From NCBI GenBank assembly GCA_014800815.1, contig JAAVFI010000039.1, positions 1 through 35,996 on the forward strand: a stretch of DNA of 35,996 bases, written 5' to 3'. Source of the DNA: Bacteroidales bacterium. Lineage in GTDB: Bacteria; Bacteroidota; Bacteroidia; Bacteroidales; Muribaculaceae. This document shows, piece after piece, positions 1-3,907 of the stretch. The notes beneath the pieces are model-generated. The model was not told where the DNA came from. It worked only from the letters and a program-made list of their open reading frames with translations, and did no database searches. Numbering within the stretch: position 1 is the first letter of the stretch; every line of letters begins with the position of its first letter. The translations under genes and the position numbers were made by a program.

Positions 1-268
1 ATACGAAAGTGATGGCTTTCTTATGACACCATTCTGACAACGCAATGGAGTATACACCTGTGTGCTCCATTGCTATCACAGCTTCCTTGATGTTGATCTT
101 GAAGGTTCGCAGCCACTTACGCATTGCCTGAAAACCTTCGGTACTATTGGGTACCTGGATGTGTTGGAACGTTCGGTAATCCTTGCCTTTCTCATAAATG
201 GCAAAGTCCAGGGTGGCTCTTGAAACATCACACCCTATGAAATGTTTGATATCTGATAAATCTTTCAT
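1..268 (-). CDS. IS110-family transposase, N-terminal part (cut by window edge)
   Basis: DNA recombinase of the IS110 family, which cuts and joins DNA with a RuvC-like DEDD catalytic domain. I translated 89 residues from an ATG at 268; the rest lies beyond the left edge. The fragment starts MKDLSDIKHFIGCDVS and carries the first family aspartate (D14, in IGCDVS) and the glutamate (E68, in IAMEHTGVY), with the spacing usual in the RuvC-like domain. The C-terminal Tnp_20 domain with the catalytic serine is not in view, so whether the gene is intact is unknown. About 200 bp upstream, on the same strand, lies a strongly structured leader. Family assignment is confident; the IS name is not known. 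Confidence 0.85.
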   Translation of the reverse strand, partial: MKDLSDIKHFIGCDVSRATLDFAIYEKGKDYRTFQHIQVPNSTEGFQAMRKWLRTFKINIKEAVIAMEHTGVYSIALSEWCHKKAITFV

Positions 269-294
269 ACCTTTGCGGTTGAAGTTTAACAATG

Positions 295-474
295 TGTTGA
301 ATGCATCCAAAACTTTTAGTAGACATGAAGGTCTAGAAATCTAGCTTGATGTGTTCAACAAATAAGACAGAGACGGACTTTAACCGGGTGTGGCCCTCAT
401 GGCTAGTTACTAGGATAGGTCACCGTCTCTGTCTTTCTATTTAACAATTCAGGGAGGGAATGTTAACTCTGAAT
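295..474 (-). ncRNA. Candidate bridge RNA of the IS110 element
   Basis: Immediately upstream of the transposase, and on its strand, three hairpins follow each other. In transcription order they are a 6-bp stem (447-452 with 469-474), a 13-bp perfect stem (364-376 with 423-435) enclosing a 46-nt loop, and a 7-bp stem (295-301 with 354-360) enclosing a 52-nt loop. IS110-group elements are known to encode a bridge RNA of about 180 nt in this position, with a 5' stem-loop followed by target-binding and donor-binding loops. Order, size and position fit. The loop of the third hairpin contains UAAAAGUU, complementary to the DNA strand at 488-495, near where the element end should be. The RNA assignment is inference. 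Confidence 0.55.
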
Positions 475-481
475 CACAGTG

Positions 482-489
482 CAAAGGTA
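482..489 (-). promoter_or_regulatory. -7 box for IS110 leader and transposase
   Basis: The minus strand reads TACCTTTG here, a perfect TAnnTTTG box, placing a start near 473-476, just before the first hairpin of the candidate bridge RNA. No TTTG/TTG element is visible at the usual upstream distance. That fits IS110 elements, which can assemble a full promoter only when their two ends join in the circular form, but it is also compatible with a weak or inactive promoter. Confidence 0.4.
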
Positions 490-500
490 AAAGTTATGCG

Positions 501-591
501 GTAATCGGTGTCCTGCCTGACACCACATAGACGCCCTGATAATGAGCCGATTACACGCAGCGGACACAGGGGTGTAGGACACCACATAGAC
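501..591. repeat. Palindromic repeat cluster beside the IS110 element
   Basis: GTAATCGG (501-508) pairs with CCGATTAC (547-554). Inside and after it lie GGTGTC/GACACC (507-512 with 519-524) and GGTGT/ACACC (571-575 with 579-583). The 14-mer GACACCACATAGAC occurs twice, at 519-532 and 578-591. From 592 to about 758 I see nothing recognisable. The short open frame at 508-714 has no protein-like composition. Confidence 0.45.
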
Positions 592-758
592 AGCTTAGCT
601 TGGCATATAGCTACTTACACAAATATAGCGCAGAGAATAGGAGGAAATCGATTTCCACGTACATACCGTAGCGGATGTGCGGGGATAGTCAACCCTCACA
701 CGCGCATAGCATAATGAATACGACCTCTCAGATTATTATCAAATTTTGCTCTATAAAA

Positions 759-819: not shown

Positions 820-2154
820 ATGAAAAAATGCGTATCTCTGCTGCTTGCGCTTTCTTTATTCAGCTGTGCGAATGAAGAACCCATTAAGCTTGACTCCCAA
901 AGCTCGCCAGATGATGCTATTGCCTCAGGAATTGACATCAATCGTCGTTCAGGAGAGGAAGCAATCGCATTAGCAAAAGCAATGACCAATCAACTCTATC
1001 CGCAGTCTGCAGTCTCTCGTTCTTCAGATGTAACGGTTTCATTGGAAGCCATTACCACTCCCAATAGTAGAGGAACTGATGCTGACACTCTCATCTATGT
1101 GGTTAACTATGAAGATAACCAAGGTTATGTATTAGTATCCGCACCCCGCCATGCAACTCCTATCCTGGCTGTCGTTGATAAAGGCAACTACAATCCTGAA
1201 ACTGGTAGTGATAATCCAGGATTGAACTTCTTCCTTGATGCCGCTCGTGAGTATGTGGCATCCACAAACTCAGGTAATATTTCTATAGGAGGGGATACAA
1301 TTCCACGTAAGCCGGATCCCGACGATATGCACCCGGCATTCGACGGTTACACTGAAATTGTGACTCATTGGGGTAGTCCTGACAACTGGCACCTTCGCTC
1401 TCAATGGGGACAAAAAAATATATATGGCCAATTTTGCCCCAATAAAATAGCCGGGTGTGCACCAGTGGCAATTGGTTCAATCTTAGCTTATTTCAATTTC
1501 AGGGAAGAAAACGCAAACGGGAGTATGAATTATAAAATGAACTATACTTTCCCTGAAAGAGATATAGACAGCGAAATTATTGACTGGATTGAGGTTTACA
1601 GACATTGGAGTATCTATTATCCTTATTTATATAAGCTCCCCGACGGAACTACTGAACTTCGAGAAATTGAAGAGGTGTGCTGGGCTCATGACAAAGAGTC
1701 GACTCACAATACGATAGGTCGCCTATTACGCCAGATTGGAGTAATGTGCAAAACAGATCATAGTAAACCTAACGAATCTTCAACAAAGAAGAGCAACGCA
1801 AAAAAAGCTATAGAGAAACTGTTTCCCGGTCTAATGATCAGCGGATACAATAAGTTTGATTCAAAGACTGTAATGAGAAGCATAGACTATGGTCTCCTAT
1901 TCATGGCAGGAAGCGACCATGCCTGGGTGGCTGACGGATATGAATATATTAAATGGCACTCATATAATGCAGAATGGGACTATACAAATAAAAAATGGAT
2001 AAACCAAACTAATAAATATTGGGAATCTTCTCTTACACACTTCCGCTGGGGCTGGTATGGTGTTGATGATGGTTTCTTTGAAGGGAACGTATTTAATGCT
2101 CAGGGCCATACATTCAAGGATCTTGAATATATAGCAATAATGTATAACCACTAA
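820..2154 (+). CDS. C10 family cysteine protease (streptopain-like), lipoprotein
   Basis: Predicted secreted papain-like protease of family C10 (relatives: SpeB, BfpA, interpain). I start at the ATG at 820 because it begins a lipoprotein signal with Cys at residue 16 (LSLFSC); an upstream in-frame ATG at 760 would bury it. The domains are a Spi-type propeptide (about residues 40-140, with YVLVSAPRHATPILAVVD) and then the peptidase. The nucleophile is Cys213 in AGCAPVAIGSILAYF, the general base His367 in SDHAWVADGYEY, and the WGW motif lies at 410-412 (FRWGWYG). The product is 444 residues, normal for lipoprotein C10 enzymes. The codons are more AT-rich than in the housekeeping genes downstream. 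The serpin gene follows after 13 nt, so the pair is probably co-transcribed. Substrates are unknown. Confidence 0.85.
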   Translation: MKKCVSLLLALSLFSCANEEPIKLDSQSSPDDAIASGIDINRRSGEEAIALAKAMTNQLYPQSAVSRSSDVTVSLEAITTPNSRGTDADTLIYVVNYEDNQGYVLVSAPRHATPILAVVDKGNYNPETGSDNPGLNFFLDAAREYVASTNSGNISIGGDTIPRKPDPDDMHPAFDGYTEIVTHWGSPDNWHLRSQWGQKNIYGQFCPNKIAGCAPVAIGSILAYFNFREENANGSMNYKMNYTFPERDIDSEIIDWIEVYRHWSIYYPYLYKLPDGTTELREIEEVCWAHDKESTHNTIGRLLRQIGVMCKTDHSKPNESSTKKSNAKKAIEKLFPGLMISGYNKFDSKTVMRSIDYGLLFMAGSDHAWVADGYEYIKWHSYNAEWDYTNKKWINQTNKYWESSLTHFRWGWYGVDDGFFEGNVFNAQGHTFKDLEYIAIMYNH

Positions 2155-2167
2155 AACGATAGTACTC

Positions 2168-3379
2168 ATGAAGAAATTACCAATTCTTTCTGCTATTGCG
2201 GTATGCACCCTCTTAGGTTCATGCAATAGTGATGACAGCAAATCAAAACTTGAAATCTGTCCGATAATGCTTTCTACCCCTGAAAGCCGCGCATCGGAGA
2301 CTCATTTCGACTTCAGCAACGAACTGCTCGGAGCCGTACTCTCGGAATATGACGACGATACAAACGTACTCATTTCACCCGTGGGTGTATCTATGGCACT
2401 CTCTATGCTCGCAAACGGCGAGAGCCAAAGCCTTGCTGCAGATATCTGCAACCTTTTAGGTGCTGACAATGTGGGTACTCTCAACAGTCTTGCCAAGAAA
2501 ATCGGTGAGGGTATGGTTCAGCAAGACCCTCAGATAGAACTCGCAATGGCAAACTCGATCTGGTACAAAGACGAGGAGAGTCTCACTTCAGGATTCACTC
2601 AGGCGATGACAGACTTCTATGGTGCGGACTTCCACGCTGTAGATTTCAGCGACAAGGCTACTACACAAGCTCTTATCGACAACTGGGCAAGCGACCACAC
2701 GGCAGGAAAAATCAAACATTACCCCTACACAAATCCCGACTTATTCGACATGCTTGTCAACGCTCTCTATTTCCACGGGTCATGGTATGCACCATATAGC
2801 GTAAAGAATACCACTACCGAAGAATTCTATGGAGCGGCAGCTACAACAGACGTTGCAATGATGCACGATAGCGATTTCTCGGCTTCGGGAACGGTGACAC
2901 GTGACGAATCTTGTGCTATTATCGAAAAATCTTTCGGCAGCGGTTCGATATACAGCGTCCGCTTCGTACTTCCCGACCCCGACTATACTCCCGCTCAACT
3001 CATCAACGATGTAAAATTTTATGAGCAGGATGCCCTAATGTTCGGAAACATCAAACTCAACATGCCCAAGTTCAATCTCGACGAACAGCCTAAGATCGAT
3101 CTTAGCGAGACTATGAAGAAACTCGGGGTAGATATGGCGAAGGAGACTACAATCTTCGAGAGCGGAGCAGCTCTCACTCACCAACTATATCAGAAATGCT
3201 CGGCTTCGTTTGATGAGGAGGGTGCGGTGATAGCATCAGTCAGCTCTGCCGAGGGGTGGGTGACATCTCCGGGTTGGGTCAACAAAAGCGAAATCACACT
3301 CAACCGCCCGTTCCTTTTCTATATCATGGATCATCGTCTCGGAATCGTACTTCTTGCAGGACGTATAGCTCAGCTTTAA
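2168..3379 (+). CDS. Serpin (protease inhibitor), lipoprotein
   Basis: Suicide inhibitor of the serpin superfamily, 403 residues, with a lipoprotein signal (lipobox LLGSC, Cys19), so probably surface- or periplasm-anchored. Serpin landmarks are the N-terminal NVLISPVGVSMALSMLANG helix region, the hinge FDEEGAVIASVSSAEG (about residues 345-360), and the C-terminal LNRPFLFYIMDHRLGIVLLAGRI signature. The small residues of the hinge suggest a working inhibitor. By hinge spacing the scissile bond may lie near W-V-T-S, giving a hydrophobic P2, which papain-like enzymes prefer. That register is an estimate. It follows the C10 protease by 13 nt in the same operon, so it may protect the host cell from that protease or target foreign proteases. 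Confidence 0.88.
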   Translation: MKKLPILSAIAVCTLLGSCNSDDSKSKLEICPIMLSTPESRASETHFDFSNELLGAVLSEYDDDTNVLISPVGVSMALSMLANGESQSLAADICNLLGADNVGTLNSLAKKIGEGMVQQDPQIELAMANSIWYKDEESLTSGFTQAMTDFYGADFHAVDFSDKATTQALIDNWASDHTAGKIKHYPYTNPDLFDMLVNALYFHGSWYAPYSVKNTTTEEFYGAAATTDVAMMHDSDFSASGTVTRDESCAIIEKSFGSGSIYSVRFVLPDPDYTPAQLINDVKFYEQDALMFGNIKLNMPKFNLDEQPKIDLSETMKKLGVDMAKETTIFESGAALTHQLYQKCSASFDEEGAVIASVSSAEGWVTSPGWVNKSEITLNRPFLFYIMDHRLGIVLLAGRIAQL

Positions 3380-3386
3380 TAATGGA

Positions 3387-3406
3387 GGACGCACCGAGGT
3401 GCGTCC
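3387..3406. repeat. REP-like perfect palindrome
   Basis: GGACGCACC, two bases, then GGTGCGTCC: a 9-bp perfect inverted repeat 8 bp after the serpin stop, without a T-tract. Short hairpins of this GGACGCACC type look like dispersed intergenic repeats; no second copy occurs in this window. Confidence 0.45.
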
Positions 3407-3515
3407 CTACATTGATAATCAAACACTTAAAGGTTTACTATCCGCTGAATAGTTACCCAAAATCTCTCTTTGTGCTAAAATCATTTAAAAGTAAGCACAC
3501 TCTAAAATATTCACA

Positions 3516-3546
3516 GCCTCGGTCCTTCATGCACCGAGGCTTTTTT
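3516..3546 (+). terminator. Rho-independent terminator of the protease/serpin operon
   Basis: GCCTCGGT (3516-3523) and ACCGAGGC (3533-3540) form an 8-bp stem with a 9-nt loop, followed directly by six T. It lies 137 nt past the serpin stop and just before the next promoter. Confidence 0.85.
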
Positions 3547-3568
3547 ATGCCGTTTTCAGTCATAGAGT

Positions 3569-3599
3569 TTTGTAGATTGGCGGATTATCCATAAATTTG
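3569..3599 (+). promoter_or_regulatory. Promoter of the 3.6-kb structured RNA
   Basis: TTTG (3569-3572), 19 bp, then TAAATTTG (3592-3599): a full-consensus Bacteroidetes promoter with no protein start downstream for almost 600 bp. The expected start is near 3602-3607. Confidence 0.7.
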
Positions 3600-3601
3600 C
3601 A

Positions 3602-3907
3602 AGCGATATTCTCTCGGGGATATCGCTACATACGGAATTATCATAGAGCGTTTCGCTTATCTTGCCGAAAGAAAACCTGAGAAATTTTCAAAGAATGCAA
3701 GAGATAAGAGAGCGGTTCTCATGCTATATAGCGTGGGCTCCACTTCACGTATCTCGCATTCAAGGTTTTCTCAGGACCGTCTTTCGGAGGTACAGTGAAT
3801 CAGTCCGCGCTTTTGCATTGTATCAACACGGTCTTCGGTGGACTGAAGAAGACTACGATATATCCACACTACGTGAAAAAATTTCTGGATTTTCTTCTCG
3901 CTTTTTT
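3602..3907 (+). ncRNA. Candidate structured non-coding RNA, about 300 nt
   Basis: No convincing protein is encoded here; a 148-residue open frame from a TTG at 3662 has no recognisable features. The sequence folds well. There is a 5' hairpin AGCGATAT/ATATCGCT (3602-3609 with 3620-3627). A long interrupted helix joins CCGAAAGA, CCTGAGAAA, GAATGC and GAGATA (3665-3706) to TATCTC, GCATTC, TTTCTCAGG and TCTTTCGG (3750-3787). A third hairpin is CAGTCC/GGACTG (3801-3806 with 3840-3845). A weak stem and six T at 3875-3907 could end it. The long bulged rod recalls 6S-type RNAs, and Rfam lists a Bacteroidales-1 RNA family, but I cannot match it to either by eye. A strong promoter lies upstream and a terminator isolates it from the serpin operon. 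Confidence 0.6.

What the first reader, a model, noticed from the sequence alone, without database searches (positions are those of the whole stretch)
1..500. IS110 element with a three-hairpin leader resembling a bridge RNA
The sequence shows three consecutive hairpins in about 180 nt upstream of an IS110 transposase: 6 bp, then a 13-bp perfect stem with a 46-nt loop, then 7 bp with a 52-nt loop. IS110-group bridge RNAs have a 5' stem-loop followed by target-binding and donor-binding loops and a length near 177 nt. The last loop's UAAAAGUU complements the DNA at 488-495, where the element end is expected; one 8-nt match could still be chance. If real, this is a programmable recombinase with a new guide.
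Basis: partly seen in the sequence, partly recalled or inferred. Interest (0 to 1): 0.75.

Follow-up and report, generated by a model that had tools for sequence, protein, structure and literature searches.

The report
IS110 transposon with bridge RNA guide
The first 500 bases hold one end of a small jumping gene whose RNA appears to carry address labels both for the jumping gene itself and for the repeated hairpin sites it jumps into; this is a new example of a recently discovered kind of RNA-guided recombinase.

Summary
In detail: the three hairpins, the 13-bp stem and the 8-nt match at 488-495 are there as described. The window starts at a contig edge inside an IS110-group element; the transposase ATG is at 268 (minus strand), the left end at 492/493. 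Relatives' ends include the whole RNA region. A covariance model built from seven close copies finds the same RNA upstream of five distant IS110 transposases and of one broken one; in the joint alignment 26 of 33 base pairs show changes on both sides. The long loops are internal loops with upper stems, as in IS621. The left target guide follows the left flank across 13 close elements (0 of 200,000 permutations reach the observed score), the right target guide the right flank across 7. Donor guides match both element ends. The genome carries three left and three right ends, at REP-like hairpins, plus unoccupied target copies. The joined ends would form a Bacteroidetes promoter. So this is a new member of a known kind: an IS110-group bridge RNA element of a Muribaculaceae-type genome. 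Less ordinary: one relative's remnant breaks exactly at the guide's own core, suggesting that guide DNA can be mistaken for target DNA.

The parts
1..268 (-). 5' part (89 codons) of the IS110-group DEDD transposase; runs off the contig edge at base 1
   Evidence: PF01548 E 5.4e-5, below its gathering score because truncated, while the intact relatives P0002 and P0003 match PF01548 and PF02371; 77% identity to P0002 over 90 residues
269..492 (-). non-coding left end (LE) of the element; crossover point between 492 and 493
   Evidence: similarity to copies in other contigs and genomes stops at about 493-498; empty target paralogues share 493 onward
482..489 (-). TACCTTTG, a perfect TAnnTTTG -7 promoter box of the Bacteroidetes type; its -33 partner (TTG, 20 nt upstream) lies in the right end, so it would be complete only in the circular form
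   Evidence: consensus from PMC7366714 (passages)
296..480 (-). predicted bridge RNA (about 185 nt)
   Evidence: model R1 208.5 bits (window is in the training set); covariation
447..474 (-). 5' stem-loop (ATTCAG/CTGAAT)
   Evidence: fold; stem shape varies among relatives and is not in model R1
364..435 (-). target-binding loop: 13-bp lower stem 435-423/376-364
   Evidence: 5 of 13 pairs with changes on both sides in the close set, 12 of 13 in the wider set; fold
406..414 (-). left target guide CCTAGTAAC (core AC at its end)
   Evidence: matches left flanks of the C47 and C49 copies (CCAGTAAC) and, more weakly, of this copy (GCATAAC)
391..405 (-). upper stem of the target-binding loop (TAGCC/GGCCA; compensated TAGTC/GACTA in L017 and L118)
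382..389 (-). right target guide ACCCGGTT, complementary to AACCGGGT
   Evidence: right flanks of this genome's three right ends read C|CGGGTACATG, C|TGGGTACATG, C|CGGGTACATG; intact TAACCGGGTACATGCCG at C6 and C24
296..359 (-). donor-binding loop: lower stems 359-354/301-296 and 351-348/307-304, upper stem 335-331/324-320
336..344 (-). left donor guide CTAGATTTC, identical to the last 9 nt of the right end
   Evidence: right ends in L036, L041, L043, L050 read before any right-end pattern was made; guides; own right ends (pattern contains these letters)
493..504 (-). left target half TTACCGCATAAC, core AC at 494-493
507..524 (.). REP-like hairpin GGTGTC-CTGCCT-GACACC beside the target
   Evidence: like hairpins beside the C47 and C49 copies and at empty paralogous sites

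Best explanation
Bases 1-492 are the left end and the start of the transposase of an IS110-group insertion sequence. Its left end encodes a bridge RNA on the minus strand. The RNA binds the encoded DEDD/serine recombinase. Its first internal loop pairs with both strands of a genomic site beside a REP-like hairpin (left guide with the left half, right guide with the right half, meeting at a core whose invariant letter is C). Its second internal loop pairs with the joined ends of the excised circle (left guide = right end CTAGATTTC, right guide complementary to the left end AACTTTTA). Top strands are cut after the core C, exchanged and resolved, so the element inserts with no duplication. Joining right and left ends builds a Bacteroidetes promoter that would transcribe the RNA. 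Shown here by sequence: ends, RNA structure, guide-to-DNA covariation, multiple copies, empty target paralogues. Inferred from IS621: RNA binding, circle formation, chemistry.
For: Transposase domains and catalytic residues aligned with IS621. RNA covariation and recovery of the RNA by a model built from 7 close copies in 5 of 10 distant IS110 loci plus L161, E 1e-7 to 1e-11. Left guide against left flank: 13 element types, 0 of 200,000 permutations; 19 types, 0 of 100,000; the 6 distant ones alone 299 of 100,000. Right guide against right flank: 7 types, 2 of 5,040, the two being the true pairing and the swap of two types with nearly the same guide. Left donor guide against right end: 9 of 9 letters in L036, L043 and G102 and, with a different sequence, 9 of 9 in L052, L044 and L039. 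Promoter halves. Three left and three right ends in this genome.
Against: The window's own left flank matches its guide only in part (GCATAAC against TAGTAAC); C47 and C49 fit better. For 4 of 13 close types (own, L011, L023, L059) another element's left guide scores higher than the true one, and the distant L052 matches 4 of 7. Right guides of G241, L044 and L045 (by eye) match weakly. The first core letter differs between target (A or G) and right end (T), unlike the shared CT of IS621. Model R1 matched nothing, or only weak pieces, at 5 of 10 distant loci. No full copy of the transposase was found in this genome, probably because repeats break the contigs. No RNA or protein experiment.
Confidence: 0.95

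Rival explanations
1. IS1111-type element, with the guide RNA in the right end and long subterminal inverted repeats.
For: Same transposase superfamily.
Against: The conserved RNA is upstream of the gene in the left end in the copies where RNA and gene are both seen; I saw no long inverted repeat joining the ends: the shared TTGC letters are the two promoter boxes (by eye).
Confidence: 0.02
2. The hairpins only regulate the transposase (leader or barrier to outside transcription) and do not guide recombination.
For: Long non-coding 5' region with strong stems; PMC11208160 (section 5) mentions earlier ideas of small RNAs modulating an IS110 recombinase.
Against: A mere leader would not change in step with the flanking DNA of each element nor contain the element's own two ends.
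Confidence: 0.02
3. A decayed, inactive copy whose RNA no longer works.
For: Contig edge hides most of the gene; this copy's left flank is an imperfect match.
Against: Three left ends in one genome identical over 103 nt, open frame to the edge, guides intact.
Confidence: 0.15

Closest known systems
IS621 of E. coli (IS110 group, bridge RNA; PMC11208160, PMC11208158)
   Same: DEDD + serine recombinase (phmmer E 2.8e-29 for the relative P0002), RNA of about 180 nt in the left end, 5' stem-loop then target loop then donor loop, split guides overlapping at the core, handshake letters, promoter split over the junction, REP-type targets
   Different: core is NC with an invariant C at the cut instead of CT; promoter is TTG/TAnnTTTG instead of sigma-70; guides differ; no Rfam family matches
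ISCro4 (solved structure 9t56)
   Same: transposase homologue, phmmer E 4e-27
   Different: sequence distant; its RNA was not compared here
ISEc21 seekRNA, IS110 type (PMC11187229)
   Same: upstream non-coding region makes the guiding RNA; insertion without target duplication (passages read)
   Different: RNA and ends were not compared here
IS110-group elements L052, L045, L044, L048, L039, L161 of Bacteroidota genomes
   Same: RNA recovered by model R1 just upstream of the gene; left guide matches left flank in 5 of 6 (6 or 7 of 7 non-core letters)
   Different: transposases 37-42% identical to P0002; L161 has only a broken start of one; other guides; the left end begins CTTTAG rather than TTTTAC in five of the six

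Membership tests
IS110 group | N-terminal DEDD (PF01548) and C-terminal Transposase_20 (PF02371) | tested here: met
   met in intact relatives P0002 and P0003; the window shows only the N-terminal part, PF01548 at 5.4e-5, under the cut-off
IS110 group | catalytic D, E, D, D and serine of IS621 | tested here: met
   P0002 D15, E69, D109, D112, S251 align with D11, E60, D102, D105, S241 (positions counted by me; IS621 residues from PMC11208158); in the window only D and E are present
IS110 group | structured RNA in the left end, upstream of the gene | tested here: met
IS110 group | target and donor loops complementary to target and to both element ends | tested here: met
IS110 group | core dinucleotide shared by target and donor | tested here: inconclusive
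   only the C next to the cut is shared in the close set (AC/GC on the left, TC on the right); in L044 both letters are shared (GC). PMC11208158 says that the first core letter is less conserved
[quoted passage not shown]
   TTG - 20 nt - TACCTTTG for the own genome's ends; transcription not tested
IS110 group | insertion without target duplication | tested here: met
   comparison with paralogous empty sites, not with an allelic empty site
IS110 group | circular intermediate; RNA-dependent recombination | not testable with these tools
   needs experiment or reads
IS1111 group | guide RNA in the right end | tested here: not met
   RNA is in the left end
IS1111 group | subterminal inverted repeats of 7-17 bp | tested here: inconclusive
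   none seen on reading the 24 right ends and the left ends by eye; no program was run for it

The most novel reading that the evidence does not exclude
A bridge RNA gene necessarily contains DNA copies of half its own target and half its own donor (the left-guide DNA equals left target plus core; the complement of the right donor guide equals core plus right donor). The remnants suggest that the recombinase sometimes uses these copies. In G113 (L125/L165) a remnant runs left target-left end-5' stem-left guide and then joins, exactly after the guide's core, the right half of the target. In G034 (L127) a left target joins, exactly at the core, the complement of the right donor guide. Such self-recognition would kill elements, leave short scars at REP sites and set a limit on guide design.
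Probability: 0.35. Interest if true: 0.6.

Novelty: new member of a known kind. Interest (0 to 1): 0.4.

Why it matters
It adds a Muribaculaceae-type branch with a Bacteroidetes promoter and an NC core to the bridge RNAs with documented guide-to-target agreement, and shows natural copies in one bacterial family programmed for different sites while sharing nearly the same donor loop. If the guide-mimic scars are real, they expose a built-in weakness of bridge RNA systems that matters to those who engineer them.

Tried and rejected
Rfam scan of the window: no match at gathering score. Plasmid DNA search with bases 1-700: nothing; plasmids by protein give 1,205 records, each under 60% identity, the best-ranked 32.5%. 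Viral contigs with the transposase alignment and with two DNA patterns: nothing. Palindromic miniature forms: the pattern finds only the two already known, G102:C49 and G142:C19, in 2 of 16 genomes; both flanks are of left-target type. I considered fold-back copying, but the flanks differ, so two convergent insertions followed by deletion fit better; not settled. A second IS110-family element in G034 ('IS-B', L127 2187-3260) is inserted between the two loops of a related bridge RNA gene in L118 and abuts a donor-loop fragment in L127; I considered a guide-directed hyperparasite, but at E 1e-30 only one copy of its transposase exists among 16 genomes plus a 43% relative in G083, so it stays a note. 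In one search my pattern for the 3' arm of the lower target stem caught the wrong place in several rows; those counts were dropped and replaced. Alignment A4 held two antisense matches (L036, L010), left out of A5 by a stricter E-value. A5 keeps L013, whose 3' part is the inserted IS-B sequence, so some of its donor-loop cells are not meaningful. L002, L003, L068, L076 and L083 are sites of two element types and were averaged within type. The left-end pattern misses known left ends in G006 and G083.

Against the scar reading: L119's left guide is a poor match to its own left target (3 of 6 non-core letters, as L023) and what follows is not a right target; a deletion through the 8-9 bp likeness between guide DNA and target DNA, without the recombinase, would give the same L125 junction. 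The site comparison for L125 comes from 387,272 bases of G113, about 15% of that genome; one paralogous cluster was found, and it holds three target units where L125 has one.

Full report
What is in the window. The window begins at a contig edge (contig C39 of a 79-contig, 2.77-Mb genome). On the minus strand an open frame runs off base 1; its ATG is at 268-266. The 103-residue frame matches DEDD_Tnp_IS110 weakly (5.4e-5, under the gathering score because truncated); an intact relative, P0002 from L010 (G134), and P0003 from L012 (Duncaniella, 64% identical to P0002) match both IS110 domains and the NCBIfam IS110 RNA-guided transposase model. P0002 aligns over nearly its whole length with IS621 (8wt6, E 2.8e-29) and ISCro4, and D15, E69, D109, D112 and S251 sit on the five IS621 catalytic residues (IS621 numbers from passages of PMC11208158; positions counted by me).

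The hairpins. The 185-nt strand 480-296 folds with z = -2.93, none of 200 shuffles as good. Both long loops are internal loops: the target loop has an upper stem TAGCC/GGCCA, the donor loop TAGAC/GTCTA. In 12 close sequences 8 of 33 pairs show changes on both sides, 12 cells, against 2.2 pairs and 3.3 cells on shuffling, 0 of 500 (one other measure, further pair types, does not exceed its shuffles). RNAalifold on seven sequences gives mostly the same helices, with changes on both sides in 5 of its 40 pairs but almost no covariation term (0.17 kcal/mol), because the seven are alike. A covariance model (R1) built from those seven then found the RNA in 5 of the 10 distant IS110 loci searched (L052, L045, L044, L048, L039; E 1.4e-7 to 1.6e-11; transposases 37-42% identical to P0002), each just upstream of the gene and in its direction; L042 and L047 gave only weak partial matches and L046, L049 and L051 none. 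Among 393 genomes of the order it matched two at E 0.001, the own genome and G484 (L161, strict filters, 6 candidates scored per genome). Behind the L161 RNA stands only the start of an IS110-like frame (MIFTETIGIDVSK), which meets a stop after 64 codons; its family was judged by eye. With these six added (17 sequences) 26 of 33 pairs show changes on both sides, 73 cells against 18 on shuffling, 0 of 500. That alignment is fitted to the model, which favours the structure; the slid controls reach at most 7 pairs.

The ends. Similarity to other copies and to empty paralogous sites switches at 493. A left-end pattern found 39 sites in 14 of 397 genomes of the family (it misses known left ends in G006 and G083); a right-end pattern found 23 sites in 9 of 16 genomes given. 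The latter was written from four right ends read beforehand in L036, L041, L043 and L050, all ending TTGC-6 nt-CCTAGATTTC. The own genome has three left ends (C39, C47, C49) and three right ends (C27, C42, C68); which belongs to which cannot be told. Left flanks end in A(A/G)C (GAC in L043) and usually carry a hairpin shortly before: 32 of the 38 left flanks that are 60 bases long have a stem of 5 bp or more ending 8-18 nt from the cut, against 30% of letter-shuffled flanks. Right flanks often begin at the first base of another hairpin (not counted, and some, such as L088 and L091, do not). Empty paralogues in the own genome read, for example, CATAAC|CGGGTACATGCCG (C24); the exact string TAACCGGGTACATGCCG occurs twice, at C6 and C24.

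Guides and DNA. Left target guide: the letters before the upper stem, compared with the nine letters left of the cut, three core letters left out, register free by one: 58.3 of 78 letters match for 13 element types against 39.5 on permuting guides among types, 0 of 200,000 as high; the true guide is best or joint best for 9 of 13, not for own, L011, L023 and L059. Examples: L010 ATTGATAGC with the identical flank; L043 GTACGGAC; L014 CCAGTAAC. With six distant types: all 19, 0 of 100,000; the six alone 299 of 100,000; L045, L044 and L048 match 7 of 7 non-core letters, L039 and L161 6, L052 only 4. The cut in L039 is uncertain by about 3 nt. Right target guide: 7 types, 33.2 of 35 letters against 20.9 permuted, 2 of 5,040 as high, the two being identity and the swap of own and G102, whose guides are nearly alike; G006 matches over GACGTGCCTT. 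Among distant elements the right guide fits well by eye in L052 and L039 and weakly in L044 and L045; no right end is held for L048 and L161. Left donor guide CTAGATTTC equals the right end; in L052 (TTAGAATTC), L044 (TTAGAATGC) and L039 (CTATAATAC) guide and right end change together (there I found the right end by looking for the guide's letters within about 500 bases of the gene).

Core and promoter. In the close set the cut follows a C shared by target and right end; the letter before it is A or G on the left and T on the right. PMC11208158 reports that in IS621 relatives the second core letter is nearly invariant and the first is not, so this looks like an NC version of the same rule. The left end starts with TACCTTTG and the right end carries TTGC, giving TTG-20 nt-TAnnTTTG in the joined form, close to the Bacteroides sigma-ABfr consensus TTTG/TAnnTTTG quoted in PMC7366714 (passages). 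No transcript data were available.

Known or new. Papers seen: PMC11208160 (abstract, sections 5, 6, 7, 12, first part of 43, passages), PMC11208158 (passages), PMC11187229 (passages), PMC7366714 (passages). IS110 with bridge RNA, REP targets, left-end RNA and junction promoter are all in print, and PMC11208160 predicts such RNAs in 85.7% of the ISfinder IS110s. Searches pairing IS110 with Muribaculaceae (1 paper), with bridge RNA and self-targeting (1 paper) and with miniature elements (10 of 14 listed) showed no paper on this element or on guide self-recognition as far as titles and abstract starts tell; I did not read those papers. Only the held open-licence library was searched.

Remnants. 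L043 is the one copy with both ends inside its contig; L036 starts at a contig edge and L010 lacks its right end for the same reason. Broken copies away from contig ends: L125 (left end to left guide, then CCCACGCTCGCAGCC, which is the right half of a target: the paralogous cluster in L169 reads AGTAAAC|CTCACGCTCGCAGCC); L119 (break right after the left guide's core, followed by TTTTTAG); L120 (right junction at TTTTAAC in the complement of the 5' loop, beside an inverted left target); L127 (left target joined to TTTTAGTAGAC, the complement of the right donor guide); L112 and L126 (palindromic left ends, both flanks left-target type); L118 (interrupted by IS-B); L116 has a run of N. So 3 of 6 breaks (L125, L119, L127; IS-B and the N run left out) lie at the core position of a guide. 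This was noticed after the fact and only L125 is clean. It is my boldest reading, not the main finding.

Verdict. It is a real, well-supported and ordinary member of a young and interesting class.

Noticed in passing
window 820-2154 (+) and 2168-3379 (+): A C10 family peptidase with its Spi-type propeptide (PF01640, PF13734) lies directly before a bacterial serpin (PF00079); protease and protease inhibitor side by side next to the element.
   Followed up: no
L125 (G113:C4:31500-35500) and L169 8040-8560: Remnant that joins the left guide's core directly to the right half of the target; the paralogous cluster shows three target units.
   Followed up: partly
L127 (G034:C5:60500-64500) around 2005-3700, and L118 (G034:C69): A second IS110-family element (358 aa) sits between the two loops of a related bridge RNA gene in L118 and abuts a donor-loop fragment in L127; possibly an element that targets bridge RNA genes.
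   Followed up: partly
L112 (G102:C49, about 225-292) and L126 (G142:C19, about 1738-1803): Palindromic miniature elements of about 66-68 bp made of two inverted left ends, with left-target type flanks on both sides.
   Followed up: partly
window 493-620: Repeated extragenic hairpins (GACACCACATAGAC twice, 59 bases apart) form a REP-like family that recurs in the own genome and serves as target.
   Followed up: partly
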